Assembly: GCF_030811455.1 (NCBI RefSeq)
Contig: NZ_JAUSQU010000001.1
Coordinates: forward strand, 5,270,001 to 5,334,000
DNA: 64,000 nucleotides
From: Streptosporangium lutulentum
GTDB lineage: Bacteria > Actinomycetota > Actinomycetes > Streptosporangiales > Streptosporangiaceae
Direction: 5' to 3'
Part shown: positions 4,511 to 32,079 of the stretch, in pieces
Layout: every line of letters starts with the position of its first letter
How positions within the stretch are numbered: the first letter of the stretch is position 1
The notes under the pieces: model-generated
What the model was told of the DNA's origin: nothing
The model's input: only the letters and a program-made list of their open reading frames with translations
Databases searched by the model: none
Position numbers and translations under genes: made by a program

Positions 4511-7500
4511 ATGCAACATACGGTAATTGGCCGATTCCTTGATGTCGTGAACGCCGGCCCCGACCGCGTCGCGGTGCGTTCTGCCGATTCCTCGGTCACC
4601 TACGCCGAACTGGCCGCCGCCGCCGGGGGAATCAGGCACCTCGTCGCCGCCGCGGGAGGCCGCCCGGGGGCACGCGTCGGCCTGTTGACCGGCCACGACG
4701 CAAAAACCGTCGCCGCCGTTCTGGGAACCCTGCTCACCGGCTGCGTCTACGTTCCGCTGGACCCGTCGTACCCCGTGCCGCGGCTGGCGTACATGCTCGG
4801 CGACGCCGACGTTTCCGTGCTGGTCACCACGCGGAGACACGAGGCACTCGCCCGGACCCTCCTGGGAGAGCGGTCCTGCGAGGTGGTCTTCGTCGAAGAC
4901 GCGATCCCGACGGCCCCGGCGATCGCCGGATCGATCGATCCCGACGGCCTGGCCTACCTGCGATACACCTCAGGATCCACCGGCGTGCCCAAGGGCGTGG
5001 CCCAGAGCCACCGCAACCTGGCGCACTGCGTCGACAACCAGATCGAAAGCCTGTCGATCACCTCCGAGGACCGGCTCAGCCTGCTCGCCTCGGTCAGCTT
5101 CGACGCCTCCATCCCGGACATCTACCCCGCCCTGCTGGCGGGCGCGACCGTGGTGCCGATCGACGTCCGCGCCCTCGGGCCGGACGAACTGGTGCGGCAC
5201 CTGGCCGAGCTGGGGGTGACCGTCTACCACTCCACCCCGACGCTCTACCGTTACGTGCTCGACGCGCTGGGGTCCCATGGCCGGCTGCCCTCGATACGCA
5301 CCGTTCTGCTGGGCGGCGAGCGGGTGACCCGGTCCGACGTGATCGCGGGCCGGGGGCGTTTCGCCGACGCCTGTGCTTTCGTCAACGGTTACGGTGCCAC
5401 CGAGGCCACCTTCGTGGCCCACTACCGGACCTCTTTCGACTCGCCGGCCGAGCCGGAGACCGGACCCTCGCTGCCGATCGGGCACGCTCTGCCGGGCTAC
5501 GAGGTGGTGCTGCTGGACCCCCGCCCCGGCGAGGGCGAGGCCGAGGGCGTGGGCGAGATCGCCGTCCGCAGCCCGTACCTGGCACTGGGGTACTGGCGGG
5601 ATCCGGAGCGCACCGCCGAACGGTTCACCACCGACGACGACGGCAGGCGGGTCTACCGCACCGGAGACCTCGGGCGTGAGCTCCCCGACGGCACGCTGGT
5701 CTGCCTCGGCAGACGCGATCGGCAGATCAAGGTGCGCGGGTTCCGCGTCGAACCGGCCGAGGTCGAGGCGCACCTGGCGGGGCAGCCGGGGGTGGCCAGA
5801 GCCGTGGTCACGCTCGCCGGCGACAGGCTCGTCGCCCACGTCCAGCCCTCCGCCGCCGCCGTACTGGATCCGGCCGCGATGCGGCGGACCGCGGCCGAGG
5901 TCCTCCCCGACCATCTGGTGCCCGCGGCGATCGTGGTGCTCGACGCGCTGCCGCTCACCCCGACCGGCAAGGTGGACGTCCAGGCCCTGCCCGCGCCGGG
6001 CCCCGCCCGCGACGGCGAACGGCCCGCCACCCCCGCCGAGACCACCGTGCACGACGCCTGGTGCGAGGTGCTCGGCGTGGCCCGGATCGGCGTGACCGAG
6101 CCGTTCTTCGACGCGGGCGGCCACTCCCTGCTCCTGGGACGGCTTCAGCGGCTGCTGGCCGCCGCGTTCGGGACACCGGTATCGATGATGACCCTGTTCG
6201 AGCACACCACGGTGCGCGCCCAGGCCCGTGCCCTGGCCGCTCCGGACGACACGTCGCCCGCTCCGGGTGACGCGCCACCCCTCCGGCCCGCCGTCGCGGA
6301 GCTCCCCGGCCCCGACGACGACACCCTCGACGGGCACATCGCCGTGGTCGGCCTGGCCTGCAGGTTCCCCGGCGCACCCGGCCCCGCCGCCTTCTGGTCC
6401 GTGCTGTCCGACGGGGTGGACGCCATCTGGGACTACTCGGACGCGGAGCTGCGCGAGCTGGGCGTCGGGGAGTCGTTGCTGGCCGACCCCGCGCACGTGA
6501 AAGCCGGCGGGAAGCTGGACGGGGTGGCGGACTTCGACGCGGAGTTCTTCGGATTCGGCGCGGAGGAGGCCGCCCGCACCGATCCGCAGCACCGGCTGTT
6601 CCTGGAGACGGCCTGGGAGGCCCTGGAGGACGCCGGCTACGACCCTGACCGGTTCGACGGCCAGATCGGCGTGTTCGCCTCCGCCGCGGCCAACCGGTAC
6701 TTCCTGTTCCACCTGTTCGGCAACCCCGCCGCCGGAACGCCGGCCGACCCCGACGACTGGGAGGGACGGCTCCTGTCCCACCAGGGCTCCGACCACCTGC
6801 CGGGACAGGTCGCCTACCGGATCGGCCTGACCGGCCCGGCGATCGCGGTGCAGAGCGCCTGCTCCAGCTCCCTGGTCGCGGTCTGCCTGGCCGCCCAGAG
6901 CCTCGCCGACCACCGCTGTGACCTCGCGCTCGCGGGCGGTGTCACCGTCACCTGGCCGAGGCACCGGCACACCCCCGGCGGGATGGTCTCCTCCGACGGC
7001 CGGTGCCGCGCGTTCGACGCCGCGGCCGACGGCTCGGGGTTCTCCAGCGGGAGCGGCGTGGTGGCGCTGAAGCGGCTCGCGGACGCCATGGCCGACGGCG
7101 ACCACGTGTACGCCGTGATCCCCGGCTGGGCGATCGGCAACGACGGCGCCGCGCGGGCCGGCTTCGCCGTACCGGGCCTGGCCGGGCAGGTGGCCGCGGT
7201 GACCGAGGCCCTGGAGGACGCGGAGATCTCCCCCGACGAGGTCGGCATGGTGGAGGCCCACGGCAGCGGCACACCGCTGGGAGACGCCATCGAGGTGGAG
7301 GCGCTGACCCGCGCCTATCTCGCGGCCGGCGCGCGGAGCACCGGAGGATGCGCGCTGGGTGCGGTCAAGACCAACATCGGCCACACGGACGCCGCCTCCG
7401 GAATCGCGGGGTTCATCAAGGCGGTCCTGTCGGTACGGCACCGGCAGATCCCCGGCAACCTGCACCTCACCTCCCCCAACCCCCAGCTCGACCTGGACCG

Positions 7501-7993
7501 TGGACCGTTCTACCTGCCCACCAAGACGACGGACTGGCCCGCCGGCCGCCGGCGCGTCGCGGGGGTCAGCGCGATCGGCATCGGCGGCACCGGCGCGCAC
7601 GTCCTGGTGGCCGAGGCGCCGGAGCCGCCGGCCGCGGCGCCCGCCTCCGGGCGCCGGTACCTGTTCCCCGTCTCCGCCCGCTCCCCCGAGGCCCTGCGCG
7701 CCGCGATCGTACGGCTCCGCGACCACCTCGCCGACAACCCGCACCTGTCACCGGCCGACGTGGCCTACACCCTGACGGCCGGACGCCGTTCCTTCGCCCA
7801 CCGGGTCGTCGTGGAGTGCGGCAGCCTCGCCGAGGCGATCACCGCACTCGACCCCGACCGGCTGTCGTCCCAGGCTCACACGCCGGAGACGCCGCCCTCC
7901 GGCCCCGCCGTCCCAGGCCGGCGGATACCCCTGCCGACCTACCCCTTCCAGCGGCAGCGCCACTGGATCGACCTGCCGGGAGGCACCCGATGA
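4511..7993 (+). CDS. Hybrid NRPS-PKS loading protein, A-PCP-KS, AT missing
   Basis: 1160 residues. Adenylation domain 1-490: A3 core YTSGSTGVPKG near 152, A5 NGYGATE near 292, A8 KVRGFRVEPAE near 407, A10 PTGKVD near 484. PCP with GGHSL near 535. Ketosynthase 609-1037 with the full triad: Cys784 in ACSSS, His917 in EAHGSGT, His958 in NIGH. There is no condensation domain, so it looks like a starter module. After the KS, about 70 residues of KS-AT linker run straight to the post-AT motif YPFQRQRHW (about 1143-1151), so an AT has been removed; there is no ACP. By hand alignment the A pocket reads roughly DAPHLGGFV, which I cannot assign. Asp at position 235 suggests an amino acid. AGGA precedes the ATG at 4511. 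Confidence 0.9.
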   Translation: MQHTVIGRFLDVVNAGPDRVAVRSADSSVTYAELAAAAGGIRHLVAAAGGRPGARVGLLTGHDAKTVAAVLGTLLTGCVYVPLDPSYPVPRLAYMLGDADVSVLVTTRRHEALARTLLGERSCEVVFVEDAIPTAPAIAGSIDPDGLAYLRYTSGSTGVPKGVAQSHRNLAHCVDNQIESLSITSEDRLSLLASVSFDASIPDIYPALLAGATVVPIDVRALGPDELVRHLAELGVTVYHSTPTLYRYVLDALGSHGRLPSIRTVLLGGERVTRSDVIAGRGRFADACAFVNGYGATEATFVAHYRTSFDSPAEPETGPSLPIGHALPGYEVVLLDPRPGEGEAEGVGEIAVRSPYLALGYWRDPERTAERFTTDDDGRRVYRTGDLGRELPDGTLVCLGRRDRQIKVRGFRVEPAEVEAHLAGQPGVARAVVTLAGDRLVAHVQPSAAAVLDPAAMRRTAAEVLPDHLVPAAIVVLDALPLTPTGKVDVQALPAPGPARDGERPATPAETTVHDAWCEVLGVARIGVTEPFFDAGGHSLLLGRLQRLLAAAFGTPVSMMTLFEHTTVRAQARALAAPDDTSPAPGDAPPLRPAVAELPGPDDDTLDGHIAVVGLACRFPGAPGPAAFWSVLSDGVDAIWDYSDAELRELGVGESLLADPAHVKAGGKLDGVADFDAEFFGFGAEEAARTDPQHRLFLETAWEALEDAGYDPDRFDGQIGVFASAAANRYFLFHLFGNPAAGTPADPDDWEGRLLSHQGSDHLPGQVAYRIGLTGPAIAVQSACSSSLVAVCLAAQSLADHRCDLALAGGVTVTWPRHRHTPGGMVSSDGRCRAFDAAADGSGFSSGSGVVALKRLADAMADGDHVYAVIPGWAIGNDGAARAGFAVPGLAGQVAAVTEALEDAEISPDEVGMVEAHGSGTPLGDAIEVEALTRAYLAAGARSTGGCALGAVKTNIGHTDAASGIAGFIKAVLSVRHRQIPGNLHLTSPNPQLDLDRGPFYLPTKTTDWPAGRRRVAGVSAIGIGGTGAHVLVAEAPEPPAAAPASGRRYLFPVSARSPEALRAAIVRLRDHLADNPHLSPADVAYTLTAGRRSFAHRVVVECGSLAEAITALDPDRLSSQAHTPETPPSGPAVPGRRIPLPTYPFQRQRHWIDLPGGTR

Positions 7994-8754
7994 CCACCCT
8001 GACGGCTCGTTGGTTCCGGTGCTCACAGCCGTTGCCGCGCGCGGCGTTCCGGCTGTTCTGCCTGCCGTACGCCGGTGCGGGCGCGGGCGTGTTCCATCCG
8101 TGGCCGTCCGCCCTCGCTCCCGGCGTGGAAGTCGTGGGCATCCAGTTGCCGGGCAGGGAGAACCGGATCGTCGAGCCGGCCGAGATCGACCTGTCCGAGC
8201 TGGCCACCGCGGTCGCCGACGCCGCGGCCGCCGACAACCGTCCCTACGCGCTGTACGGGCACTCGCTGGGCGCGCGGCTCGCGTTCGAGGTGGTACGGCT
8301 GCTGCGCCGTGCCGATGCGCCCCTGCCGGTCCGGATGTACGTGGGCGCCGCCCGCGCGCCGCACCTGAGCGGGTCGGCCATGTTCGACGGGCTCTCCCTC
8401 CTCTCCGACGACGAGCTGGTCGCCCGGGTCGTGGCCGGAGGCGGCGTGCCCGAGGCGGTCGCCGACGAACCGGAACTGCTGGAGCTGCTGCTGCCGGCGC
8501 TGCGGGCGGACTTCACCTGGCTGGACGACTACGTGTACCAGCCAGAACCGCCGCTTCCGGTGGCGATCACGGCCTTCGCCGGCACCCTCGACCGGGCCGT
8601 CTCGGTGGAACAGGTGGCCGCGTGGGAACAGCACACCACCGCCGGGTTCGTCCTGCACCGCATCGACGGCGACCACTTCTTCCTCCAGGACCGGCTGACG
8701 GATCTGACCGCCCTCCTGACGGCGGACCTCATGACCGCGGGCGGTGTGAGGTGA
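7990..8754 (+). CDS. Type II thioesterase
   Basis: 254 residues, alpha/beta hydrolase of the TEII family that clears misprimed or stalled carrier-protein thioesters in NRPS/PKS lines. The N-terminal CLPYAGAGAGVF and QLPGRE motifs fit. The triad is Ser92 in GHSLG, Asp201 and His229 in GDHFF. The start ATG overlaps the preceding stop as ATGA and its own stop overlaps the next start as GTGA. Confidence 0.92.
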   Translation: MTTLTARWFRCSQPLPRAAFRLFCLPYAGAGAGVFHPWPSALAPGVEVVGIQLPGRENRIVEPAEIDLSELATAVADAAAADNRPYALYGHSLGARLAFEVVRLLRRADAPLPVRMYVGAARAPHLSGSAMFDGLSLLSDDELVARVVAGGGVPEAVADEPELLELLLPALRADFTWLDDYVYQPEPPLPVAITAFAGTLDRAVSVEQVAAWEQHTTAGFVLHRIDGDHFFLQDRLTDLTALLTADLMTAGGVR

Positions 8755-11036
8755 CGAAGGTGAACCTGGGCGACACCGGCTGGTCGGTGTGGACCGACGC
8801 GCTGCTGCGCACCACCGGATTCCCCGCCGACGGACTGAACGCCTTCGCCGCACCCTCGGCCGCCGCAGCCGCCGACGACCTCCTGACCGGCCACGGCTCC
8901 ACCGACGCCTTCGACAAGGCCCTGACCGAGGCGATCACCACCGGAGCGCAGAAGATCTGCGACATCGCCGCCGACCCGCTCTTTCGCGAAGCCGTCACCT
9001 GGCAGAACCCCGGCGTCCTCGTCGCCCTGGACGGCCTGCTCACCGGCGGCCCCCACGCCACCCGCAACGTCCGCCGCCGCGACCGCGAACGCGCCGTCCT
9101 GCGCTACTGGCAACGCTACTGCGCCAAAAACGAGACCATCGGCTTCTTCGGACCCGTCTGCTGGATCACCGTCGCCCCGGACACCGATCAGATGGTGGAG
9201 ATCCGTACCGGAGCGGGCCTGCTGCGCGAACGCCGCGTGTTCTTCGAGGGCTGGGCGATGACCGCCTACGCCGACCACCTCGCCACCGACCCGCGCGTCC
9301 GCCGCTGGTGGCCACCCGCCCTCCTGCCGCACCTCACCCTGCACGAACGGCAGATCCTGCGGCCCCTGCAACCGCCCCTGCCGCTGTCCTCACCCGAGGC
9401 CGCCCTGCTGGCCCGCTGTGACGGACGCACCCCCGCCGTGAACGTGGTCGCCGAACTCGCCCGCCCCGAAGACGGCTACCTCCTCCTGGAACGACTGGTC
9501 GAGCGCGAGCTGATCACCTGGGACGCCGCCCTGCCCATCGGCCGCGACGCCGAACACGAACTCCGCACCCGCATCCACGCCATCGGCGACCCCGACCTGC
9601 GCGAACAGTCACTGAACGGCCTGGACCGGCTGTGCGCCGCCCGCGACACCGTCGCCGCCGCCGCCGGAGACCCCGACACCCTCAAAACCGCCCTCGCCAC
9701 CCTCGACACCGAGTTCACCGCCCTGACCGGCGCCCCACCCCGCCGCCGCGACGGCCAGATGTACGCCGGCCGCACCCTCTGCTACGAAGACACCACCCGC
9801 GACCTCGACACCGTCATCGGCACCACCCTCCTGAACGACCTCGCAGCACCCCTCGCCATCACCCTCACCACCGCCCGCTGGCTCACCCATGAGATCGGTT
9901 CGGCCTGCCGGGACGTCCTGCGGGGCCTGTACGACGAGCTGAGGGAGGACACCGAGGGTCCGGTACGGCTGGCCGACCTGTGGTATCTCGCCCAGGGGCT
10001 GCTGTTCGCCGGTGGCGAGAATCCCTTTCGCGCGGTGGCAGATGACTTCGCCCGACGGTGGGCCGAGCTGATCGGCGTGTCGATCGCACCCGAGGGCGAC
10101 GCCCCGGTCCGGTTGTCCTCCGCCGACCTGGCCGAGCCCGTGGCCCGGCTCTTCCCCGCCGAGCGGCCCGGCTGGTCCAGCGCCCGGATCCACAGCCCCG
10201 ACCTGCAGATCTGCGCCACCGACGTCGACGCGATCAACCGCGGCGACTACCAGGCGGTCCTCGGCGAACTGCATCCGGCGTGGGCGCCGTTCGACAGCGC
10301 CCTGTTCAGCCCGTTCCACCCCGACCCCGATCGGCTACGCGCCCACTACGACCTCGATCTGGGGCCGGATCGAATCCGGATCCTGTATCCGGAGGACTAC
10401 CCCCGCAACACCAGCCGCACCGGTTACGGGCTGGTCGGGCCCGGCGACCGGCAGCTGGGCATCGACAAGGCCCGCGGCGCCGACCCCGACCGGCTGTTGC
10501 CGTCCACCTCCGTCACCGTCTCCGACGAGGACGGCGCCCTGATCGCCACGGCGTCCGACGGGCACCGATGGCCGCTGATCGAGATGTTCGCCGGGATGCT
10601 CAGCACGCAGCTGATGGACGCGTTCAAGCTCACCCTGCCCCTCTCGCACGTCCCCCGGATCACCATCGACCGGCTGGTCATCACCCGCGAGACCTGGCGC
10701 ACCACCGTCGCCGACACCGGACTGGCCACCATCACCGACGAACGCGAACGCTACCTCGCCACCCGCACCTGGCGAGGACACCTCAACCTGCCCGACCAGG
10801 TCTTCGTCAAGATCGGCACCGAAGTGAAACCCTGCTACTTCGACCTCACCAGCCCCCACTACACCGGCCTCCTGTGCACCATGCTCCGCACCGCCGGAGA
10901 AGACGCATCCGTAACGGTCAGCGAAGCCCTGCCCACCCCCGACCAGGCCTGGGTCCCCGACCACAACGGCAACCGCTACTTCAGCGAACTCCGCCTGCAG
11001 ATCACCGACCCCGCCACCGCGGACGGTGTGAGGTGA
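8751..11036 (+). CDS. LanB-type dehydratase N-domain (PEARL-like) protein 1
   Basis: 761 residues. Resembles the glutamylation (Lant_dehydr_N) domain of lantibiotic dehydratases: the KNETIGFFGP block near 125-135 matches the family's RxTPFGxF position, and VFVKIGTEVKPCYFDL near 685-700 matches the C-terminal KPxYxD signature. The family uses aminoacyl-tRNA, usually Glu-tRNA, to esterify Ser/Thr or, in PEARLs, to extend a peptide scaffold. The SpaB-type elimination domain of about 300 residues is absent. The GTG at 8751 is coupled to the thioesterase by GTGA; a second in-frame GTG lies at 8760. Its location in an NRPS/PKS operon without a precursor peptide is atypical. It is paralogous to the next gene. 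Substrate and chemistry are unknown. Confidence 0.8.
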   Translation: MTKVNLGDTGWSVWTDALLRTTGFPADGLNAFAAPSAAAAADDLLTGHGSTDAFDKALTEAITTGAQKICDIAADPLFREAVTWQNPGVLVALDGLLTGGPHATRNVRRRDRERAVLRYWQRYCAKNETIGFFGPVCWITVAPDTDQMVEIRTGAGLLRERRVFFEGWAMTAYADHLATDPRVRRWWPPALLPHLTLHERQILRPLQPPLPLSSPEAALLARCDGRTPAVNVVAELARPEDGYLLLERLVERELITWDAALPIGRDAEHELRTRIHAIGDPDLREQSLNGLDRLCAARDTVAAAAGDPDTLKTALATLDTEFTALTGAPPRRRDGQMYAGRTLCYEDTTRDLDTVIGTTLLNDLAAPLAITLTTARWLTHEIGSACRDVLRGLYDELREDTEGPVRLADLWYLAQGLLFAGGENPFRAVADDFARRWAELIGVSIAPEGDAPVRLSSADLAEPVARLFPAERPGWSSARIHSPDLQICATDVDAINRGDYQAVLGELHPAWAPFDSALFSPFHPDPDRLRAHYDLDLGPDRIRILYPEDYPRNTSRTGYGLVGPGDRQLGIDKARGADPDRLLPSTSVTVSDEDGALIATASDGHRWPLIEMFAGMLSTQLMDAFKLTLPLSHVPRITIDRLVITRETWRTTVADTGLATITDERERYLATRTWRGHLNLPDQVFVKIGTEVKPCYFDLTSPHYTGLLCTMLRTAGEDASVTVSEALPTPDQAWVPDHNGNRYFSELRLQITDPATADGVR

Positions 11037-13303
11037 CGAAGGTGAACCTGGGCGACACCGGCTGGTCGGTGTGGACCGACGCGCTGCTGCGCACCACCGG
11101 ATTCCCCGCCGACGGACTGAACGCCTTCGCCGCACCCTCGGCCGCCGCAGCCGCCGACGACCTCCTGACCGGCCACGGCTCCACCGACGCCTTCGACAAA
11201 GCCCTGACCGAAGCGATCACCGCCGGAGCGCAGAAGATCTGCGACATCGCCGCCGACCCGCTCTTTCGCGAAGCCGTCACCTGGCAGAACCCCGGCGTCC
11301 TCGTCGCCCTGGACGGCCTGCTCTCCGGCGGCCCCCACGCCACCCGCAACGTCCGCCGCCGCGACCGCGAACGCGCCGTCATCCGCTACTGGCAACGCTA
11401 CTGCGCCAAAAACGAGACCATCGGCTTCTTCGGACCCGTCTGCTGGATCACCGTCGGCCCCCACGCCCCTCAGGCACTGCAGGTCCACGCAGGAGCGGGC
11501 CTGCTGCGCGAACGCCGGGTGTTCTTCGAAGGCTGGGCCATGACCGCCTACGCCGACCACCTCGCCACCGACCCGCACATCCGCCGATGGTGGCCACCCA
11601 CCCTGCTCCCCCACCTCACCCTGCACCAACGACAGATCCTGCGCCCCATGCAACCGCCGCTGCCGTTGACGGCGCCGGAAGCGGCATTACTGGCCCGCTG
11701 CGACGGACGCACCCCCGCCATCGACGTCGTCACCGAACTCACCCGCCCCGAAGACGGCTACCTCCTCCTGGAACGACTCGTCGAACGCGAACTCATCACC
11801 TGGGACGCCGCCCTGCCCATCAGCCGCGACGCCGAACACGAACTCCACACCCGCATCGAAACCATCGGCGACCCCCTCCTCCGCGAACGATCACTCACCG
11901 GCCTGGACCGGCTGTGCGCCGCCCGCGACACCGTCGCCGCCGCCGCCGGAGACCCCGACACCCTCAAAACCGCCCTCGCCACCCTCGACACCGAGTTCAC
12001 CGCCCTGACCGGCGCCCCACCCCGCCGCCGCGACGGCCAGATGTACGCCGGCCGCACCCTCTGCTACGAAGACACCACCCGCGACCTCGACGCCGTCATC
12101 GGCACCACCCTCCTGAACGACCTCGCAGCACCCCTCGCCATCACTCTCGTCGCCGCCCGCTGGCTGACGGCGACGCTGGCCGACGCATACGGGACGGCGC
12201 TGCGGGAGCTCCACGACGACCTGCGGGAGGGCACCGACGCCCCGGTGCGCCTGGCCGACCTGATGTCTCTGTCCCAGGGACTGTTCTGGGGAACCGGACG
12301 GCGTCCCGCGGACGCCGTCGCCGAGGAGTTCACCCGGCGCTGGGAGAGCCTGTTCGGCCTTGACGGGAGCGACACCCCTGTCCGGCTGTCCGCCGCCGAC
12401 CTGGCCGAGCCCGTGGCCCGGCTCTTCGCCGCCGAGCGCCCCGGCTGGTCCACCGCCCGGATACACAGCCCCGACCTGCAGATCTGCGCCACCGACGTCG
12501 ACGCGATCAACCGCGGCGACTACCAGGTGGTCCTCGGCGAACTGCACGCGGCGTGGCCGACGTTCGACAGCGATCTCTTCACCGTCTGGCACCCCGAGGT
12601 CGAACGGCTCCGGGAGCAGCTGACCGCCGACGTCGGGCGGCACAGGGTCCGGCTGCTCCATCCCGACACCTGGCCCCGGTACACCGGACGGGTCGCGGCG
12701 TCGCTCACCGGCGCCACCGACCGGCTGCTGGGGTTCGCCGCGGCGCGGAGCGCCGACCCCGACCGGCTGTTGCCGTCCACCTCGGTCACCGTCTCCGACG
12801 AGGACGGCGCCCTGATCGCCACGGCGTCCGACGGGCACCGATGGCCGCTGATCGAGATGTTCGCCGGGATGCTCAACGGACTCGCCGTCGACGCGTTCAA
12901 GCTCACCACGCCCACTCCCCACGTCCCCCGGATCACCATCGACCGGCTGGTCATCACCCGCGAGACCTGGCGCACCACCGTCGCCGACACCGGACTGGCC
13001 ACCATCACCGACGAACGCGAACGCTACCTCGCCACCCGCACCTGGCGAGGACACCTCAACCTGCCCGACCAGGTCTTCGTCAAGATCGGCACCGAAGTGA
13101 AACCCTGCTACTTCGACCTCACCAGCCCCCACTACACCGGCCTCCTGTGCACCATGCTCCGCACCGCCGGAGAAGACGCATCCGTAACGGTCAGCGAAGC
13201 CCTGCCCACCCCCGACCAGGCCTGGGTCCCCGACCACAACGGCAACCGCTACTTCAGCGAACTCCGCCTGCAGATCACCGATCCCGCCACCGCGGACGGT
13301 GCG
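8751..13303 (+). repeat. Tandem gene duplication with mosaic identity
   Basis: Two copies: 8751-11036 and 11033-13309. Near-identical blocks pair 8751-9172 with 11033-11454, about 9618-9886 with 11900-12168, about 10136-10262 with 12409-12535, about 10471-10610 with 12744-12883, and about 10650-11030 with 12923-13303. Between them lie clearly diverged blocks (for example 9887-10135). The offset changes from 2282 to 2273 bp, a 9-nt in-frame indel inside a diverged block. Confidence 0.85.
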
Positions 13304-13309
13304 CGATGA
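11033..13309 (+). CDS. LanB-type dehydratase N-domain (PEARL-like) protein 2
   Basis: 758 residues, tandem paralogue of the preceding gene. The first 137 residues differ at about three positions and the last 125 at about one. The middle (about residues 140-160, 378-460 and 505-570) is diverged. It keeps the KNETIGFFGP and KPCYFDL signatures and also lacks an elimination domain. It starts at a GTG overlapping the previous stop (GTGA) and ends overlapping the next ATG (ATGA). The conserved ends and diverged core suggest a shared tRNA or ATP-independent acyl-transfer fold with changed substrate contacts; that reading is inference. Confidence 0.8.
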   Translation: MTKVNLGDTGWSVWTDALLRTTGFPADGLNAFAAPSAAAAADDLLTGHGSTDAFDKALTEAITAGAQKICDIAADPLFREAVTWQNPGVLVALDGLLSGGPHATRNVRRRDRERAVIRYWQRYCAKNETIGFFGPVCWITVGPHAPQALQVHAGAGLLRERRVFFEGWAMTAYADHLATDPHIRRWWPPTLLPHLTLHQRQILRPMQPPLPLTAPEAALLARCDGRTPAIDVVTELTRPEDGYLLLERLVERELITWDAALPISRDAEHELHTRIETIGDPLLRERSLTGLDRLCAARDTVAAAAGDPDTLKTALATLDTEFTALTGAPPRRRDGQMYAGRTLCYEDTTRDLDAVIGTTLLNDLAAPLAITLVAARWLTATLADAYGTALRELHDDLREGTDAPVRLADLMSLSQGLFWGTGRRPADAVAEEFTRRWESLFGLDGSDTPVRLSAADLAEPVARLFAAERPGWSTARIHSPDLQICATDVDAINRGDYQVVLGELHAAWPTFDSDLFTVWHPEVERLREQLTADVGRHRVRLLHPDTWPRYTGRVAASLTGATDRLLGFAAARSADPDRLLPSTSVTVSDEDGALIATASDGHRWPLIEMFAGMLNGLAVDAFKLTTPTPHVPRITIDRLVITRETWRTTVADTGLATITDERERYLATRTWRGHLNLPDQVFVKIGTEVKPCYFDLTSPHYTGLLCTMLRTAGEDASVTVSEALPTPDQAWVPDHNGNRYFSELRLQITDPATADGAR

Positions 13310-16300
13310 ACGACCTGTTGTCCCCCTCCGCGGGGAACCCGCCGTCCCGGCCGGGAACGGACTCCTCGCACCTCGTGGAGACGACCGCCGCCGACCTCAT
13401 CGTGGCGCGGGCTCGCGCCGTACCCGACGCGGTCGCGGTCGCCCAGTGGGACGAGAAGATCACCTATCGCGAGCTGGTCGGCCGCGCCGCGGCGCTCTCC
13501 GCCCGGCTCGGCGCGCTCGGCGTCGGGCCGGAGAGCAGAGTCGGGATCTGCGTGGAACGGCGCCCCGAGATGGTCGTCGCGGTCCTGGGCGTCCTGCTCG
13601 CCGGCGGCTGCTACGTACCGCTGGATCCGGCCGGTCCGCGGCTGCGGCTCCGGGACATGACCGCCGACGCCGGCCTGGACGTCGTGGTGTGCGACCAGGC
13701 GGGAGCGGAGGCGGTCGGCGAGGCGGGTCCGCGGTGCGTCGCCGTACCCGGCCCGGCGGAGGAGCCGGTCGATCTGACCGCCGTGCCCGCCTGCCCCGCC
13801 GCGCCGGACAACCTCGCCTACGTGTTGTACACCTCCGGCTCCAGTGGGCGGCCCAAGGGCGTGCTCGTCACCCACCGCAACCTGGTCTCGTTCGTCGTCG
13901 CATACGTCACGAACGTCGGGGCCGACCACACCACCCGCGCGCTGGGGTTCTCCTCCCTCGGATTCGACGCCTCCTCCATCGACCTGTTCGTGCCGCTGTC
14001 CGTGGGCGGGTCGGTGCAGCTGGCCGACGACACCGACCGCACCGACCCGGCCCGGCTGCGGCGGTTCATCGCCGAGCACCGGGTCACCTGGGGATTCGTC
14101 ACCCCGGCTGTGCTCTCCCTGCTCGACCCGGTCACGCTGCCCGGCTGGCGGGTGGTGATGTGCGGCGGCGCCGCGGTGCCGCCCGAGCTGGTCGATCGGT
14201 GGGCGGCGCCCGGCCGACGGTTCGTCAACATCTACGGGCCCACCGAGACCACGGTGGTGGTCGTCACCGACGAGCTGACCGCGCCGCAGGTCACGCCGGT
14301 GCCGATCGGCTTTCCCACGCCCGGCCACCGCTGCCATGTCGTCGACGACCGGCTCCGCCCGGTCGAGCCCGGCGTCGAGGGCGAACTGCTGGTCGGCGGC
14401 CCCGGCGTCACCCGCGGATACCTGAACAGTCCCGGTCTGACCGCCGGGGTGTTCGTGCCGGACCCGTTCTCCGGCGAGCCGGGCGCGCGGCTCTACCGGA
14501 CCGGGGACATGGTGCGGTACGCCGACGACGGGCGGCTCGTCTACCTGGGCCGCCGCGACGGGCAGATCAAGGTTCGCGGCCAGCGGATCGAGCTCGGCGA
14601 GGTCGCCGCCGTGCTGCAGGAGCACCCGGCGGTGGCGCAGGCGGCCGTGGAGGCGCTGCCCCGGACCGGCGGAGATCTGGAACTGGTCGCGTTCCTCACG
14701 CCGCGGGACGCCCCCGCCGACATCGGCTACGCCGCCTCGCGGCTGACCGCGGCGATGCTGCCGGGGCGCGTGCTGCGCCTGCCCGAGCTGCCGCTCACCT
14801 CCTCCGGCAAGGTGGACCGGGCCAGGCTGCGGGAGCTGGCCGACGAGGAACGCCCGGCCGACGTCTCGCCGGAAGGGGGAACGGCCGCGGAACGGGCGCT
14901 CGCGGCGATATGGCGGCGCTTCGGCGTCGGCGCCGACTTCTTCGCGAGCGGAGGCGACTCGATCACCGCGATGCGGCTGGTCGCCGCCGTCCGGGACGAG
15001 CTGGGCCTGGACGTGACGGTGGACGACGTGTTCGCCGGCCGTACCCTGCCGGAGATCGCCAGGCGGTTCGGCAAGGCCCCCCGGCTGCCCGGCCCGGAGC
15101 TTGTCCTCGGCCACCCGCCGACCCTGGCGCCACCGCAGCGCCGTCTGTGGTTCCTGGACCAGCTGGCGCCCGAGGCCGCTCCGTACAACATCGCTCTCGC
15201 CGAGAGACTGCTCGGCTCCCTGGAGGTGCCCGCGCTGCGGGCCGCGCTGCGGGCGGTCGCCGAACGGCACGCCGTGCTGCGCTGGCGAATCCGGCAGAAC
15301 GCCGGGGTGCCGTACGCCGTCTGCGAGCCGCCGTCCGAGGTGGACCTGACCGTGGTGGACCTGAGCGGGTACGGCCTGGCACAGCGGGACGTGCAGCTGC
15401 GCACCCGGCTGTCGGCCGGCGCGGCAGCGCCGTTCGACCTGGCGGGCGGTCCCCCCTGGCGGGCGTGGCTGTACGTGCTGGGCCCCGACGAGCACGTGCT
15501 GGCGCTGACCCTTCACCACGCGGTGTTCGACGGCTGGTCCCAGGACACGCTCTACACCGACCTGTCCGCCGCCTACGCGGCCGCCGTCACCGGTCCGGCG
15601 GCGGACCTGGCGCCGTTGCGGGCGTCGTACGCCGACTACGCGGTCTGGCGGGCCGAGCGGGACCGCCGCACCGGTGAGGCGGACCTGGCCTGGTGGACCG
15701 AGCACCTGGGCGGGGCGCCCACCGTACTGGAGCTGCCCCGCGACCGGCCCCGCCCGGCCGTGCAGACCTACCGGGGCGCCGAGGCCCGGGTACTCCTGCC
15801 GCCCGGAGTGGACGCCGCGGTCCGCGCGCTCGCCGCCGACCTCGGGGCCACCCCCGCGGGGGTGCTGCTGGCCGGGCTCGGCCGGCTGCTCCACAGACTC
15901 ACCGGCACCGCCGACCACGTGATCGGCGCGGTCATCGCCGACCGGCGGGTGGCCGCCTTCGACGACCTGGTCGGGTTCTTCATCGACATGGTCCCGCTGC
16001 GGCTGCGCTCGGACGACGACGCCGACTTCGCCACCCTCGTACGGCGGTGCGCCCGCGAACTGCTGGACATCGCCGCGCACCCGGCCGCCCCGCTGGAACG
16101 CGTGGTCGAAAGGCTCGGCATCCGCCGGGACCCGTCCCGTGCCCCGCTGGTGCAGGTCATGTTCAACGTGTTGAACCTGAAAGAGCCCCGGCTGGGGTTT
16201 CCCGGCCTGAGCAGCGAGACGATCGAGGTCGACAAACCGGGGTCGCCGTTCGACATGACCGTGTACGTGGCGGAGCGAAACGGCGGATTCTCCGTCGAGG

Positions 16301-16857
16301 TCGTCTACAACCCCGACCTGTTCGACGCCGTCAGGATCGAGGCGATGCTCGCCGACTATGTGAACGTGCTCGGCGCGCTGGCCGCCGACCCGGCCACCCC
16401 GGTGGGCGCGGTCGCCCTGCCCGGACGGGTCACCCCCGATTCCGCGCCCGGCGCCATGCGGGTCGCCGAGCCGCACACGCCGCCCCCGAACCCGGGGAAC
16501 GGGTCGAGCGCCACCGAACAACTGATCGCCGCGATCTGGCGTGAGGTCCTGGAACGGGACACCGTCGGCCCCGACGACAACTTCTTCGACATCGGCGGTC
16601 ACTCACTGGCGCTCGCCGCCGTGCACGCCCGCCTGTGCGTCCGGCTCGACCGTGAGCTGCGGATGGTGGACCTGTTCCGCTACCCGAGCATCCGTGCCCT
16701 CGCCGTCCACCTCGACACCCAGGCCGACGGCCCCGTCGAGGACGGCAGTTCCGAAATCGCCCGTGCGACCTCCCGTGCCGAGGCGCGGCGCAACCGTATC
16801 CGACGCCCGCGACGCGTCAACAGCACCACCGGACAGGAGAACGACCATGACCAGTGA
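13306..16857 (+). CDS. NRPS, A-PCP-C-PCP
   Basis: 1183 residues. A domain about 25-510: A3 YTSGSSGRPKG near 176, A5 NIYGPTE near 308, A10 SSGKVD near 499. PCP1 with GGDS, phosphopantetheine Ser552. Condensation domain about 600-1035 with intact HHAVFDG (His737, His738, Asp742). PCP2 with GGHS, Ser1100. The second PCP has no adenylation domain in cis. The A pocket reads roughly DAIFMGIVV by hand, hydrophobic and not assignable. The tail after PCP2 is a basic segment of about 35 residues. Starting with A instead of C is unusual for an internal protein; it may be a second starter line or accept material in trans. The start overlaps the previous stop by 4 nt. Confidence 0.9.
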   Translation: MNDLLSPSAGNPPSRPGTDSSHLVETTAADLIVARARAVPDAVAVAQWDEKITYRELVGRAAALSARLGALGVGPESRVGICVERRPEMVVAVLGVLLAGGCYVPLDPAGPRLRLRDMTADAGLDVVVCDQAGAEAVGEAGPRCVAVPGPAEEPVDLTAVPACPAAPDNLAYVLYTSGSSGRPKGVLVTHRNLVSFVVAYVTNVGADHTTRALGFSSLGFDASSIDLFVPLSVGGSVQLADDTDRTDPARLRRFIAEHRVTWGFVTPAVLSLLDPVTLPGWRVVMCGGAAVPPELVDRWAAPGRRFVNIYGPTETTVVVVTDELTAPQVTPVPIGFPTPGHRCHVVDDRLRPVEPGVEGELLVGGPGVTRGYLNSPGLTAGVFVPDPFSGEPGARLYRTGDMVRYADDGRLVYLGRRDGQIKVRGQRIELGEVAAVLQEHPAVAQAAVEALPRTGGDLELVAFLTPRDAPADIGYAASRLTAAMLPGRVLRLPELPLTSSGKVDRARLRELADEERPADVSPEGGTAAERALAAIWRRFGVGADFFASGGDSITAMRLVAAVRDELGLDVTVDDVFAGRTLPEIARRFGKAPRLPGPELVLGHPPTLAPPQRRLWFLDQLAPEAAPYNIALAERLLGSLEVPALRAALRAVAERHAVLRWRIRQNAGVPYAVCEPPSEVDLTVVDLSGYGLAQRDVQLRTRLSAGAAAPFDLAGGPPWRAWLYVLGPDEHVLALTLHHAVFDGWSQDTLYTDLSAAYAAAVTGPAADLAPLRASYADYAVWRAERDRRTGEADLAWWTEHLGGAPTVLELPRDRPRPAVQTYRGAEARVLLPPGVDAAVRALAADLGATPAGVLLAGLGRLLHRLTGTADHVIGAVIADRRVAAFDDLVGFFIDMVPLRLRSDDDADFATLVRRCARELLDIAAHPAAPLERVVERLGIRRDPSRAPLVQVMFNVLNLKEPRLGFPGLSSETIEVDKPGSPFDMTVYVAERNGGFSVEVVYNPDLFDAVRIEAMLADYVNVLGALAADPATPVGAVALPGRVTPDSAPGAMRVAEPHTPPPNPGNGSSATEQLIAAIWREVLERDTVGPDDNFFDIGGHSLALAAVHARLCVRLDRELRMVDLFRYPSIRALAVHLDTQADGPVEDGSSEIARATSRAEARRNRIRRPRRVNSTTGQENDHDQ

Positions 16858-19800
16858 CGTCACCGACGAGGGCGTCGAGCCGATCGCCATCGTGGGGATG
16901 GCCGCCCGGGTACCGGGCGCGGCAGACATCGGCGAGTTCTGGCGCAACCTGGTCGACGGCGTGGAATCGATCACCACCTTCACCCGCGAGGAGCAGGTGG
17001 CCAGGGGCGTGCCCGAGGAGGACGTCGACGATCCCAGCTGGGTGTCGAAGGCCCCGTACGTGGAGGGGTACGACCAGTTCGACGCCGAGCTGTTCGGCCT
17101 GACCGCGCGAGAGGCGGAGATCCTCAACCCGCATCATCGGCTGTTCCTGGAGTCGTGCTACTCCGCGCTGAACGACGCCGGAACCGACCCGGCGCGCTAC
17201 GACGGCGCCATCGGCGTCTACGCGGGCACCGGGGGCAACCAGTACCTGTGGGAGAACCTGGCCCGCAACAAGCGCGTGTGGGACACCCGTCACGGCATCG
17301 GGCTCGCCACCGCCAACTCGCCGAACTACGTGGCCACCACCGTGTCGTACCGGCTGAACCTGCGCGGGCCCAGCCTGACCGTCCACACCGCCTGCTCCAC
17401 GTCGCTGGTCGCGCTCCACCTGGCCTGCGAGGCGCTGCGTGGCGGCGAGTGCGACATGGCCCTGGCGGGCGGGGTGAACGTGGAGCACCCACCGGCGAGC
17501 GGATACATCGGGGTGGAGGGCTTCACCTCTCCCGACGGTCACTGCCGGCCGTTCGACGCCGACGCGAACGGCACCGTCTGGGGCAGCGGCGTCGGCGTCG
17601 CCGTCCTCAAGCGGCTTGAGGACGCCATCGCCGACGGCGACCACATCCGCGCGGTGGTGCGGGGCAACGCGATCAACAACGACGGCGCCGGCAAGGTCGG
17701 TTTCTCCGCGCCCAGCGTCGACGGGCAGGCCGCCGCGGTCGCGCAGGCGGTCGGGCTGGCCGCGATCGACCCACGCACGATCGGCTACGTCGAGGCGCAC
17801 GGCACCGGCACCGCGATGGGCGACCCGATCGAGGTCGCAGCGCTGTCCGCGGTGTACACGCGGGGCACGCGGGACCGCGGCTGGTGCGGCATCGGCTCGG
17901 TGAAGTCCAACATCGGCCACCTCAGCCAGGCCGCGGGCATCATCAGTGTGATCAAGGCGGTGCTGGCCCTGGAGCACGGGCTGATCCCGCCGACGATCAA
18001 CTACGAGCGTCCCAACCCGGCGATCGACTTCGACGACACCCCGTTCTACGTGGCGTCCACGCTGAGCAAGTGGGAGACCGACGGCGGCCCCCGGCGCGCC
18101 GGGGTGAGCTCCTTCGGCATCGGAGGCACCAACGCGCACGTGGTCCTTGAGGAGGCCCCGCGCGTCGCGGCCGACCCCCTGCCCGCGCGGCCCGCGCACC
18201 TGCTGCAGGTGTCCGCCAGAACCGCCACCGCGCTGGACGCGGCGGTGGAGCGGCTCGCCGGGCATCTGACCGCCGACGAGGGCCTCGACCTCGCCGACGT
18301 CGCCCACACGCTGCGGGTGGGCCGGCCCGCGTACCCGCACCGGGCCGCGGTGGTGGCCGCCGACCGCGCCGACGCGGTCGCCGCGCTGCGGGACCGCAAG
18401 CGCCGCCGCAGGGGGGAGTCCGGCGTCACGCCGCCGGTGGCCTTCCTGTTCTCCGGGCAGGGCGCGCAGTACGCCGGCATGGGCGCGCAGCTGTACCGGA
18501 CCGAACCGGTGTTCGCCGCCGCCGTCGACGAGTGCGCGGGCCTGCTCACCGAGCACCTCGGTCTCGACCTGCGCGACCTGATGTTCGGTTCCGCGCCCGA
18601 CGCCGACGAGACGCTCCGGCAGACGCGCCTCACCCAGCCGGCGCTGTTCACCGTGGAGTACGCCCTGGCCCGGCTCTGGCAGAGCTGGGGAGTACGGCCC
18701 GCCATGATGATCGGCCACTCCATCGGCGAGTACGTCGCCGCGACCGTCGCCGGGGTCTTCACCCTGGCCGACGCGGTGCGCCTGGTCGCCGCCCGCGGCT
18801 CGCTGATGCAGTCGATGCCGCCGGGCGCGATGCTCGCCGTCCAGCAGGACGAGTCGGTGCTGGCGGGCCGGCTGCCGGACGGGGTGTCGGTGGCGACCGT
18901 CAACGGTCCGGGCACCTGCGTGGTGGCGGGCTCCCCGGACGCGATCGAGGCGTTCGCCGAGACCCTGAAGTCGGAGGAGGTGGGCTGCAAGGCCCTGCGC
19001 ACGTCCCACGCGTTCCACTCGCCGATGATGGAGCCGATCCTCGCGGAGTTCACCGCACTGGTCGCCTCGGTGCCGCGGCGGGCTCCGAGCCTGCCGTTCT
19101 GGTCCAACGTCACCGGTGAGCTCATCACCGCCGAGCAGGCGACGGACCCGGGATACTGGGCCGACCACCTGCGGCGGCCGGTGAGGTTCGGCGCCTGCGT
19201 CGCCGGGCTGTTCGCCGCATACGGCGACACGCCGCCGCTGCTCGTGGAGTGCGGCCCCGGACGACAGCTGGCCGGGCTGGCCAGGATGCAGCTGCCCAAG
19301 GGGGCGCCCGCACCGCTGCCCAGCCTGCCTGCGCCCGGGGAGCGGAGCGGGGACGCCGCCACCGTCTACGACGCCGCGGGCACGCTGTGGGCCGCCGGAG
19401 TGCCGCTGAGCGCGGGCTTCGGCGTGGCGAGCCGGCGGGTGCCGCTCCCGGCGTACCCGTTCGAGCGCCGGCGCTACTGGATCGACGCCGACCCGGTCGA
19501 TCAGGCCGCCACCGTCCCGGTCCGGCGCCGTGGCCCGCTGCCGCTGGCCGACTGGTTCGCGGTGCCCACCTGGAGGCAGGCTCCCCCGGACCTCCGCGAG
19601 ACCGAGCTGGGCGACTGCCTGGTGCTCGCCGACGGGCCCCGCGGTGAGGAGCTCGTCGCCGGGCTCCGTGCCCGGGGCGCCACCGTGCGGGTGGCCGGCG
19701 CCGGTGAGCGCGAGGCGCTGCTCGCCGACGGGACCCCCACCAGGATCGTGCACGCCCTGGCGCTGGACGGCCCGCCCGCGGACGGTGGGATCACCGCCAC

Positions 19801-22263: not shown

Positions 22264-22445
22264 ATGACCGACGACCACTACCTGGTCGTGCGTAACGACG
22301 AGGAGCAGTACTCGATCTGGCCCGTGGGGCGTACCCTCCCCGCCGGATGGCACGACATCGGCTTCAGCGGAGCCCGGCAGGAGTGCCTGGACCACATCGA
22401 GACGGTATGGACCGACATGCGTCCGCTCAGCCTCCGCCAGGGCCG

Positions 22446-22449
<4 letters not shown>
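22264..22449 (+). CDS. MbtH-family NRPS accessory protein
   Basis: 61 residues. Shows the family signature: NDEEQYSIWP, then PAGW, then CLDHIETVWTDMRPLSL. MbtH proteins bind adenylation domains and are often needed for their folding and activity. GAGG sits 8 nt before the ATG at 22264. An upstream in-frame ATG at 22246 overlaps the PKS stop (ATGA) and would add six residues; both starts are plausible. The stop overlaps the next GTG. Confidence 0.93.
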
Positions 22450-31104
<8,655 letters not shown>

Positions 31105-31108
<4 letters not shown>

Positions 31109-32079
31109 CGGGTGTCATTCCCACGGACCTGGCCCAGCTCGGGCCGGTGACCGGGCATCTGTCCGGAAACGACCACACCACCGTCGTGGTGTACGGTCTC
31201 GGGCCGGACATGACCGACCATCTCGGCTGGGTGACGGCCCATCGCGAGGGACTGCGGGCCGGTCTGGCCGGGCACGGTGCGGTACTGCTCCGCGACCTGC
31301 CAGCAGACCTCGACCTGTTCGACCGGATCGTCCGGGTCATCGGCGGCGACCCGCTGCGCTACACCGAACGCTCCACCCCGCGCACGTCCGTCACCGAGTC
31401 CATCTACACCTCCACCGAGTACCCGGCCGACCAGCCGCTCCCGATGCACAACGAGAACTCCTACTCCGACACCTGGCCGGGTCACCTGTTCTTCTACTGC
31501 GACATCGCCGCGGCCACGGGCGGGGCCACCCCGATCGCCGACAGCCGGGCGGTGTTCCGCCTGATCCCCGACGAGGTGCGGGACAGGTTCGCGGACGGCG
31601 TCGTGTACTCCAGGGCCTTCCGGGAGGGACTCGGCCTGTCCTGGCAGGAGTCGTTCCAGACCGACGACCCGGCGGCGGTGGAGGAGTACTGCGCGCGGCA
31701 CGGGCAGACGTTCGAGTGGACCGAGGACGGCCTGCGCACCAGACACCACCGGCCCTCTCACCAGACCGAGCCGCTCACCGGGGAGCGGGTCTGGTTCAAC
31801 CAGGCGAACCTGTTCCACGTCACCAGCCTGGACGAGGAGGTCCGCGAGGCCCTGCTGTCGCTGTACGACGAGGCCGACCTGCCCCGGAACGCGTATCTGG
31901 CCGACGGCTCCCCGATCGACCCCGCCGACCTGGCCGCGATCAAGGATGCCTACGACGAGGTCTCCTACGGGTTCCCCTGGCGCCAGGGCGACCTGCTGAT
32001 CATCAACAACATGCTGTGCGCGCACGGCCGGGACCCGTTCACCGGCGCCCGCCGGATCCTGGTCGCCATGACGGCCTGA
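31105..32079 (+). CDS. TauD/SyrP-family Fe(II)/2-oxoglutarate dioxygenase
   Basis: 324 residues. Non-heme iron site: His115 and Glu117 in HNEN, distal His307 in CAHGRDP, and the 2-oxoglutarate-binding Arg in GARRI near 317. The HxE facial triad and overall sequence resemble SyrP/AsnO-type enzymes that beta-hydroxylate Asp or Asn, free or bound to a carrier protein. With an Asn-specific module in the same operon, beta-hydroxyasparagine formation is the best guess. The start overlaps the NRPS stop (ATGA). It is the last gene before the 32098-32147 hairpin. Confidence 0.87.

What the first reader, a model, noticed from the sequence alone, without database searches (positions are those of the whole stretch)
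8751..13309. Two stand-alone LanB glutamylation-domain enzymes built into an NRPS/PKS operon
Seen: two proteins of about 760 residues with LanB N-domain signatures (KNETIGFFGP; KPCYFDL), no elimination domain, and 4-nt coupling on both sides to thioesterase and NRPS genes. The operon is almost gap-free from 4511 to 32079, so no ribosomal precursor peptide fits inside it. Known: this domain moves amino acids from aminoacyl-tRNA to Ser/Thr side chains or, in PEARLs, to peptide C-termini. Inference: here aminoacyl-tRNA is used on an assembly-line intermediate, for example to load the A-less PCP2, to glutamylate the C-terminal Ser, or to add a residue. That would be an NRPS-tRNA hybrid logic I do not recognise from described pathways.
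Basis: partly seen in the sequence, partly recalled or inferred. Interest (0 to 1): 0.88.

Follow-up and report, generated by a model that had tools for sequence, protein, structure and literature searches.

The report
Paired tRNA-using ligases in NRPS operon
Two neighbouring enzymes in an antibiotic-type assembly-line operon of a soil bacterium look like ligases that borrow amino acids from transfer RNA to lengthen the product; the basic idea is already published, but this paired version and how it is built in look new.

Summary
In detail: two adjacent 761- and 758-aa Lant_dehydr_N proteins sit with 4-nt overlaps inside a ten-gene NRPS/PKS operon, with no elimination domain and no room for a precursor gene. 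The claim that nothing like it is described is wrong: Yu & van der Donk 2024 (SnaE, threopeptin) showed such a protein adding Thr to an NRPS/PKS product. Both enzymes carry the Asp and Arg reported only for PEARLs (ATP- and aminoacyl-tRNA-dependent amide ligases): 139 and 138 of 139 relatives, 0 of 17 true LanBs. So each probably adds one residue to a free carboxylate.

New here: (1) the ureido-forming C domain that frees the carboxylate in sna is missing (0 of 93 related C domains); (2) the pair is a gene-conversion mosaic in which three blocks stay distinct across genera; (3) LanB1's kind always comes with LanB2's kind (39 of 39 clusters); (4) in related NRPSs, LanB accompanies an A-less second carrier in 22 of 22 loci, and was found near 0 of 26 with their own A domain. 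I propose that a detached A-T-KS station loads an acidic residue whose spare carboxylate the ligases extend. Acceptor and amino acids are inferred, not shown.

The parts
4511..7993 (+). A-T-KS protein (1160 aa): adenylation domain, carrier domain and AT-less ketosynthase with Cys and His motifs; proposed off-line loading station
   Evidence: Pfam; motifs; A code D[AML][PT]H[LVI]GGF[AVI] in 78 of 78 rows aligned, window and duplicates included
7990..8754 (+). type II thioesterase
   Evidence: Pfam PF00975; directly before LanB in 56 of 76 named loci
8751..11036 (+). LanB1, PEARL-type ligase of type II (the specialised copy; 761 aa)
   Evidence: PF04738; PEARL-type residues; groups with Micromonospora copy 2 in the block-only tree
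11033..13309 (+). LanB2, PEARL-type ligase of type I (the general copy; 758 aa); D481, E503, R643, F682, E743, R745
   Evidence: PF04738; residues; trees
12149..12406 (+). LanB2 codons 373-458: first block kept distinct from LanB1 (matching part of LanB1 likewise)
   Evidence: 46 paralogue-grouping sites against 4 species-grouping sites, WIN v G301
12533..12757 (+). LanB2 codons 501-575: second block kept distinct
   Evidence: 44 against 2
12863..12928 (+). LanB2 codons 611-632: third block kept distinct
   Evidence: 9 against 1
13306..16857 (+). NRPS A-T-C-T; second carrier domain has no A domain; C motif LHHAVFDG (not the ureido signature)
   Evidence: Pfam; motif
16847..22249 (+). PKS module KS-AT-KR-DH-ACP (KR before DH); AT with GHSIGEY and HAFH, read as malonyl type
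   Evidence: Pfam; motifs; malonyl reading recalled
22264..22449 (+). MbtH-like protein
   Evidence: translation; reading recalled; syntenic in relatives
22446..25580 (+). NRPS C-A-T, A code DLTKVGEVG (Asn/Asp-like, recalled); start codon chosen by me
   Evidence: Pfam; code
25577..31108 (+). NRPS C-A-T-TE fused to an MFS transporter, A code DVWHISLID (Ser, recalled)
   Evidence: Pfam; code
31105..32079 (+). TauD-family dioxygenase
   Evidence: Pfam PF02668
2452..4320 (-). divergent SARP-like regulator (Trans_reg_C, BTAD, NB-ARC), probable cluster regulator
   Evidence: Pfam; SARP name recalled, role inferred

Best explanation
LanB1 and LanB2 are not dehydratases but SnaE-like PEARL-type ligases. 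Each is expected to phosphorylate a free carboxylate of an assembly-line intermediate with ATP, let the amine of an aminoacyl-tRNA attack it, and release the tRNA by hydrolysis, so that the product grows by one residue per enzyme (chemistry taken from PEARLs and, by its authors' homology argument, SnaE; not shown here). LanB2 (type I) acts on the common acceptor and LanB1 (type II) on another acceptor, most simply the product of LanB2. The acceptor is most likely the spare carboxylate of an acidic residue loaded by the invariant A domain of the A-T-KS protein; the ligases extend it there and the AT-less KS passes it to the A-less second carrier of A-T-C-T (inference, about 0.35 on its own). 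Shown: gene order, PEARL-type residues, mosaic evolution, co-occurrence. Inferred: ATP and aa-tRNA use, acceptor, order of action. Unknown: the amino acids added.
For: PEARL-only residues: TglB Asp542 and Arg803 are conserved only in PEARLs and are Tyr and Leu in split LanBs (PMC11117183, passages). In 139 relatives (the window's two included) the matching D481 is present in 139 and R745 in 138 (the other row is cut at an assembly gap), E503 (TglB Glu564) in 139, E743 (Glu801) in 138; the genome's own LanB has H, A, T, V. In 17 further true LanBs the columns of D481, E503 and R745 are never D, E or R. D481-E503 spacing is 22, as 542-564 in TglB. TbtB Arg743 and Phe783 align with R643 and F682 (3-residue numbering offset mine). 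SnaE precedent: PMC11212132. Mosaic: WIN v G301, 182 sites group by genome and 100 by kind, 99 of these in three blocks. Type II always with type I: 39 of 39. LanB beside the A-less carrier: 22 of 22, against 0 of 26. Other LanB loci have a DPR-coded A domain (8 of 25), a code I recall from side-chain-carboxylate activators.
Against: No activity, structure or product is available; AlphaFold could not be run. The CCA-binding Arg of PEARLs (BhaBCTrp Arg208) is Lys in 134 of 139 relatives, while the LanB controls have Arg (17 of 17). The controls also lack R643 (0 of 17), a residue said to be shared with TbtB, and their H-E motif falls two columns from E743, so the end of that alignment is uncertain; no PEARL sequence was at hand. 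The A-T-KS code has no Arg at position 239, unlike the DPR codes, so its acidic reading is weak and rests on recalled codes. Of 25 more distant LanB loci, 14 show neither a DPR A domain nor the ureido C domain in the 20 kb or less fetched. DPR A domains also occur without LanB: 8 of 8 loci fetched for this.
Confidence: 0.72

Rival explanations
1. The type I enzyme replaces the missing A domain: it supplies the A-less second carrier with an amino acid taken from aminoacyl-tRNA, and type II adds another residue.
For: LanB lies next to the A-less carrier in 22 of 22 loci and was found near none of 26 loci of the version with its own A domain.
Against: L159 and L160 have LanB and an A domain for that carrier, as do G002, G141, G216, G253, G058, G293 and G292 (cut at the contig end) with more distant LanBs. 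Carboxylate-activating residues of the PEARL type would be pointless for a thiol acceptor. The A-T-KS protein offers an A domain in trans.
Confidence: 0.12
2. [quoted passage not shown]
For: Classical PEARLs work on C-termini; the SnaE authors leave on-line or off-line action open.
Against: LanB travels with the first part of the assembly line (TEII, AT-less KS, A-T-C-T), while the last modules differ between clusters.
Confidence: 0.15
3. They glutamylate the Ser hydroxyl of the product, as LanB glutamylation domains do.
For: PF04738 membership; last A domain has the Ser code (code recalled).
Against: PEARL-only Asp and Arg in 139 and 138 of 139 relatives and in 0 of 17 true LanBs; no PF14028 in the cluster; LanB present where the last A domain is not Ser-coded.
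Confidence: 0.03
4. One copy is a redundant recent duplicate without a function of its own.
For: 84% identity and exact DNA runs of up to 362 nt.
Against: Three blocks stay distinct and are shared with other species and, in the block-only tree, with Micromonospora copy 2; catalytic residues are kept in both.
Confidence: 0.05

Closest known systems
SnaE of the threopeptin (sna) cluster, Stackebrandtia nassauensis (PMC11212132)
   Same: stand-alone LanB-like protein in an NRPS/PKS cluster with MbtH and stand-alone TE, no precursor peptide
   Different: sna has one such enzyme and a ureido-forming C domain (EHHXXHDG) in A-T-C-A-T; here two (1-3 in relatives), C motif LHHAVFDG, A-T-C-T plus an A-T-KS protein, PKS with KR and DH. 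SnaE sequence not compared.
RiPP PEARLs (TglB, BhaB, AmmB; PMC11962472, PMC11117183, passages)
   Same: ATP-site residues Asp, Glu, Glu-x-Arg; several PEARLs in one cluster
   Different: those extend a ribosomal carrier peptide; none fits in this operon; Lys instead of the CCA-binding Arg
Split LanB glutamylation enzymes (TbtB)
   Same: same PF04738 fold family; adenine-binding Arg and Phe align
   Different: PEARL-only Asp and Arg present; no elimination partner; no precursor
LanB-less sibling assembly lines (L237-L244)
   Same: A-T-C-..-T, KS-AT-KR-DH-ACP order with related domains
   Different: own DPR-coded A domain for the second carrier; no A-T-KS and no LanB seen in 20 kb

Membership tests
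SnaE-type PEARL-like ligases of NRPS/PKS clusters | stand-alone PF04738 protein inside an NRPS/PKS operon, no PF14028, no precursor | tested here: met
SnaE-type PEARL-like ligases of NRPS/PKS clusters | ureido-forming C domain EHHXXHDG in the cluster (threopeptin logic) | tested here: not met
   not in the window's C domains and in 0 of 93 C.n1-class rows. Not filed as threopeptin-type logic.
SnaE-type PEARL-like ligases of NRPS/PKS clusters | sequence relationship to SnaE itself | not tested
   SnaE sequence was not fetched
PEARL | PEARL-only Asp (TglB 542) and Arg (TglB 803) | tested here: met
   D481 139 of 139, R745 138 of 139; 0 of 17 LanB controls; TglB reference from PMC11117183 passages. 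D481 assigned by order, invariance and spacing.
PEARL | Glu564 and Glu801 of TglB | tested here: met
   E503 139 of 139, E743 138 of 139
PEARL | CCA-binding Arg208 and Tyr205 of BhaBCTrp | tested here: inconclusive
   Tyr in 138 of 139; Lys in 134, Arg in 4, Val in 1 of 139
PEARL (RiPP type) | ribosomal carrier peptide encoded with it | tested here: not met
   no gap over 14 nt in the operon; not filed as a RiPP PEARL
PEARL | ATP- and aa-tRNA-dependent amide formation | not testable with these tools
   needs an in vitro assay
LanB / split LanB dehydratase | elimination domain PF14028 in the cluster | tested here: not met
LanB / split LanB dehydratase | Tyr and Leu in place of the PEARL Asp and Arg | tested here: not met
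   Asp and Arg found

The most novel reading that the evidence does not exclude
A two-way assembly line without ureido chain reversal: an acidic amino acid is loaded through one carboxylate on a detached A-T-KS station, its other carboxylate is lengthened there by one to three tRNA-dependent ligases, and the decorated residue is then handed by an AT-less KS to an A-less carrier, where the NRPS/PKS extends the other end. The two ligases share, and keep homogenising, one ATP- and tRNA-binding machine, and differ only in three acceptor-side blocks.
Probability: 0.25. Interest if true: 0.78.

Novelty: new variant of a known kind. Interest (0 to 1): 0.56.

Why it matters
A PEARL-like ligase in an NRPS/PKS cluster was shown once in the papers I could find (SnaE; searches in an open-licence library) and explained by a ureido-forming C domain. 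This family (its C domain class lies beside LanB in 69 of the 76 named loci kept, from several actinomycete families) has the ligases without that signature, so another source of free carboxylate should exist. It gives testable rules for predicting products, and natural experiments (1, 2 or 3 ligases; homogenised and distinct blocks) that point to the segments that set acceptor or amino-acid specificity.

Tried and rejected
Rejected: ureido chain reversal as in sna (signature absent; C.n1 forms its own clade); glutamylation of Ser; two independent duplications (suggested by the whole-protein tree, but the block-only tree joins LanB1 with Micromonospora copy 2, so the first tree reflects gene conversion). 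My first A-code script failed for many rows and was replaced by alignment.

Led nowhere: NCBIfam gave no family for either LanB; phmmer of LanB2 against the PDB gave one insignificant hit; paper searches for this cluster, for an amino-group-carrier link and for microcystin A-domain codes gave nothing usable, so all A-domain code readings are recalled; ARAGORN found no tRNA gene in the window and one, tRNA-Arg near the end of L175, in 15 related loci.

Counts and their limits: one search scored three candidates per genome, four, so their counts are lower bounds. The 76 loci are the best of 474 by a LanB2-led search, which favours type I. For one search identical sequences were merged and hits under 600 residues dropped (116 rows, 75 clusters); at least seven 'type I only' clusters (G081, G082, L139, L141, L145, L153, L169) carry a further partial, opposite-strand or chimeric copy that I did not class. 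The 93 rows and 78 include the same genome from two collections, and four rows of the 93 are remote (28-30% identity). For one search, of the more distant LanB places I fetched a part; L236 (3475 bases) was dropped, G035 was not fetched, and G012:C37 was chosen because one search had placed a DPR domain there. For the LanB control 30 loci were fetched; others (7 controls; 23, aligned into the elimination domain at the C-terminal end) were superseded, which used 17 of 30, the rest failing my frame or trimming rule; in 2 of the 17 an E-x-R occurs within the last 45 residues, not at the H-E motif. In one search I used LanB places typed.
Full report
WHAT IS THERE. The window lies at G000:C1:5,270,001-5,334,000 of a 10.6-Mb genome. 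Same-genus genomes G307 and G305 have the contig lengths of Streptosporangium minutum and S. canum records, so it is a Streptosporangium. The operon runs from 4511 to 32079: A-T-KS; type II TE; LanB1; LanB2; A-T-C-T; KS-AT-KR-DH-ACP; MbtH; C-A-T; C-A-T-TE-MFS; TauD. A SARP-like regulator lies divergently upstream.

WHAT THE LITERATURE SAYS. Yu and van der Donk (PMC11212132; parts 1-3 of 6 read) showed that SnaE, annotated as a lantibiotic dehydratase in an NRPS/PKS cluster, is needed to add Thr to the free carboxylate left by a ureido-forming C domain, and they count around two thousand NRPS/PKS clusters with such proteins. So the general idea is known. The use of ATP and Thr-tRNA by SnaE is itself argued there from homology.

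LANB OR PEARL. PMC11117183 (passages) gives the test: TglB Asp542 and Arg803 occur only in PEARLs; Arg743, Phe783 and Glu851 of TbtB are shared by both. In an alignment of 139 relatives, the window's two included, the matching columns are D481 (139), E503 (139), R643 (139), F682 (F 100, Y 39), E743 and R745 (138 each; one row is cut off by an assembly gap). The LanB of the same genome has H, T, A, L, V, A there. In 17 other full-length LanBs D481, E503 and R745 are matched 0 of 17 times each. Two cautions: these LanBs also lack R643 (0 of 17; TbtB has it), and their H-E motif aligns two columns away from E743, so the last part of that alignment is unsure. The assignment of D481 rests on order, invariance and spacing (D481-E503 is 22 residues, TglB 542-564 is 22; E503-E743 is 240, TglB 564-801 is 237), since no PEARL sequence was at hand. 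R643 and F682 align with TbtB Arg743 and Phe783 after a 3-residue numbering offset. Against: the CCA-binding Arg is mostly Lys.

RELATIVES. 72 of 345 genomes of the order have a match to LanB2 at E 1e-10 or better. A scan of one genome per species for 84,980 species gave 474 relatives, of which 76 loci were kept. Of these 76, the A-T-C-T class of C domain is present in 69, the PKS KS in 69, the AT-less KS in 64, the type II TE in 57; one AT was found in 67 and none in 9 (several loci are cut by contig ends or by the 10-kb flanks). Clusters fetched whole from Micromonospora okii, M. matsumotoense, M. antibiotica and Actinokineospora fastidiosa have the same order through C-A-T-TE-MFS, with TauD after the PKS (M. 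antibiotica has one LanB, the others two).

TWO KINDS OF LANB, KEPT APART IN THREE BLOCKS. LanB1 and LanB2 share exact DNA runs of up to 362 nt. In the quartet WIN_1, WIN_2, G301_1, G301_2, 182 sites group the copies by genome, 100 by kind and 3 cross; 99 of the 100 lie in codons 373-458, 501-575 and 611-632. By kind and inside the blocks: WIN v G311 92 of 99, WIN v G080 86 of 89, G301 v G311 123 of 124, WIN v G307 copies 2,3 88 of 95 and copies 2,1 86 of 92; G307 copies 3,1 give 16 by kind and 148 by genome, so they are of one kind. Outside the blocks the two G301 copies are 99-100% identical DNA in the 30-codon windows that do not touch a block. This is concerted evolution by gene conversion with three protected blocks. 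A tree of the blocks alone puts LanB1 with copy 2 of Micromonospora and Actinokineospora (SH-aLRT 98), whereas the whole-protein tree hides this. Classing core clusters by blocks: II+I 4, I+II 34, I+II+I 1, I only 35, I+I 1, II only 0 (75 clusters). By distance from the shared residues, BhaBCTrp residues modelled to touch the peptide (Ser503, Ser619, Lys620, Thr681; passages) fall at about 426, 547, 548 and 609: three inside blocks and one two residues outside. So the blocks probably form the acceptor side, while ATP and CCA sites are shared. That paper reports those contacts as not critical.

WHERE DOES THE CARBOXYLATE COME FROM. None of the 93 C.n1-class domains carries the ureido signature; in the regions scanned six-frame G199 and G183 have it, and also G142. 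In L159 and L160 the second carrier has its own A domain, coded DPRH. Among 25 more distant LanB loci, 8 have a DPR-coded A domain, 3 the ureido signature and 14 neither (the choice of loci was not blind, see Tried and rejected). I recall, from no call, DPR codes for the iso-Glu domain of microcystin synthetase and for aminoadipate, which are activated at the side chain and keep the alpha carboxylate free; two paper searches for these codes found nothing. Controls: in the order, 59 of 345 genomes hold an A domain like these at E 1e-95; 30 of the 30 best are DPR-coded; 8 of 8 loci fetched around such domains have no LanB in 20 kb. So a spare carboxylate is an opportunity and LanB an add-on.

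A LINK FOUND WITHOUT USING LANB. Searching 342 genomes with the C-T2 stretch gave 48 hits: 22 run through to T2 without an A domain, and in all 22 a LanB lies within 3 kb; 26 stop after C, and none has a LanB within 20 kb (Fisher p about 4e-14, not corrected for relatedness). All 26 have an A domain of the DPR class right after C in the listing. Six of the 26 (G155, G148, G209, G313, G189, G200) were fetched and searched with five LanB queries, with no hit and no A-T-KS in 20 kb; for the other 20 the absence rests, which scored three candidates per genome. The package A-T-KS + LanB + A-less carrier thus stands for the in-line A domain of its siblings.

VERDICT. Real, conserved and most likely a pair of PEARL-type ligases: a new variant of a published kind, not a new logic as such. 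The acceptor model is my inference.

Noticed in passing
L163:9914-12256 and flanks (Actinomadura sp. DC4): A 53%-identical LanB sits without the NRPS core beside a stand-alone A enzyme, KAS III, SDR, sulfotransferase, split transketolase and a LysX/RimK ATP-grasp ligase, which recalls amino-group-carrier-protein pathways.
   Followed up: partly
window 25577-31108: NRPS module C-A-T-TE fused to an MFS transporter in one 1843-aa frame; TE and MFS follow each other in the four clusters fetched whole.
   Followed up: partly
window 16847-22249: PKS module has KR before DH, an order I recall as unusual, kept in relatives.
   Followed up: no
L098 / G305:C58:21235-23552 (S. canum): A gap of 2318 N, the size of one LanB copy, right after copy 2; perhaps a collapsed third copy as in S. 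minutum, which has three.
   Followed up: partly
L237:5040-6332, L238:14194-15570, L239:13728-14918: In LanB-less sibling clusters the thioesterase carries an extra C-terminal tail (about 180-225 aa) with no Pfam match.
   Followed up: no
G000:C1:7967408-7971078: A true LanB beside a PF14028 protein, probably a lanthipeptide or thiopeptide locus of this genome.
   Followed up: no
G000:C3:108811-109121: Short PF04738 fragments on the 224-kb contig C3, possibly a LanB remnant.
   Followed up: no
window 32848-42567: A 3239-aa protein with an N-terminal WXG100-like domain, convergent with the operon.
   Followed up: no
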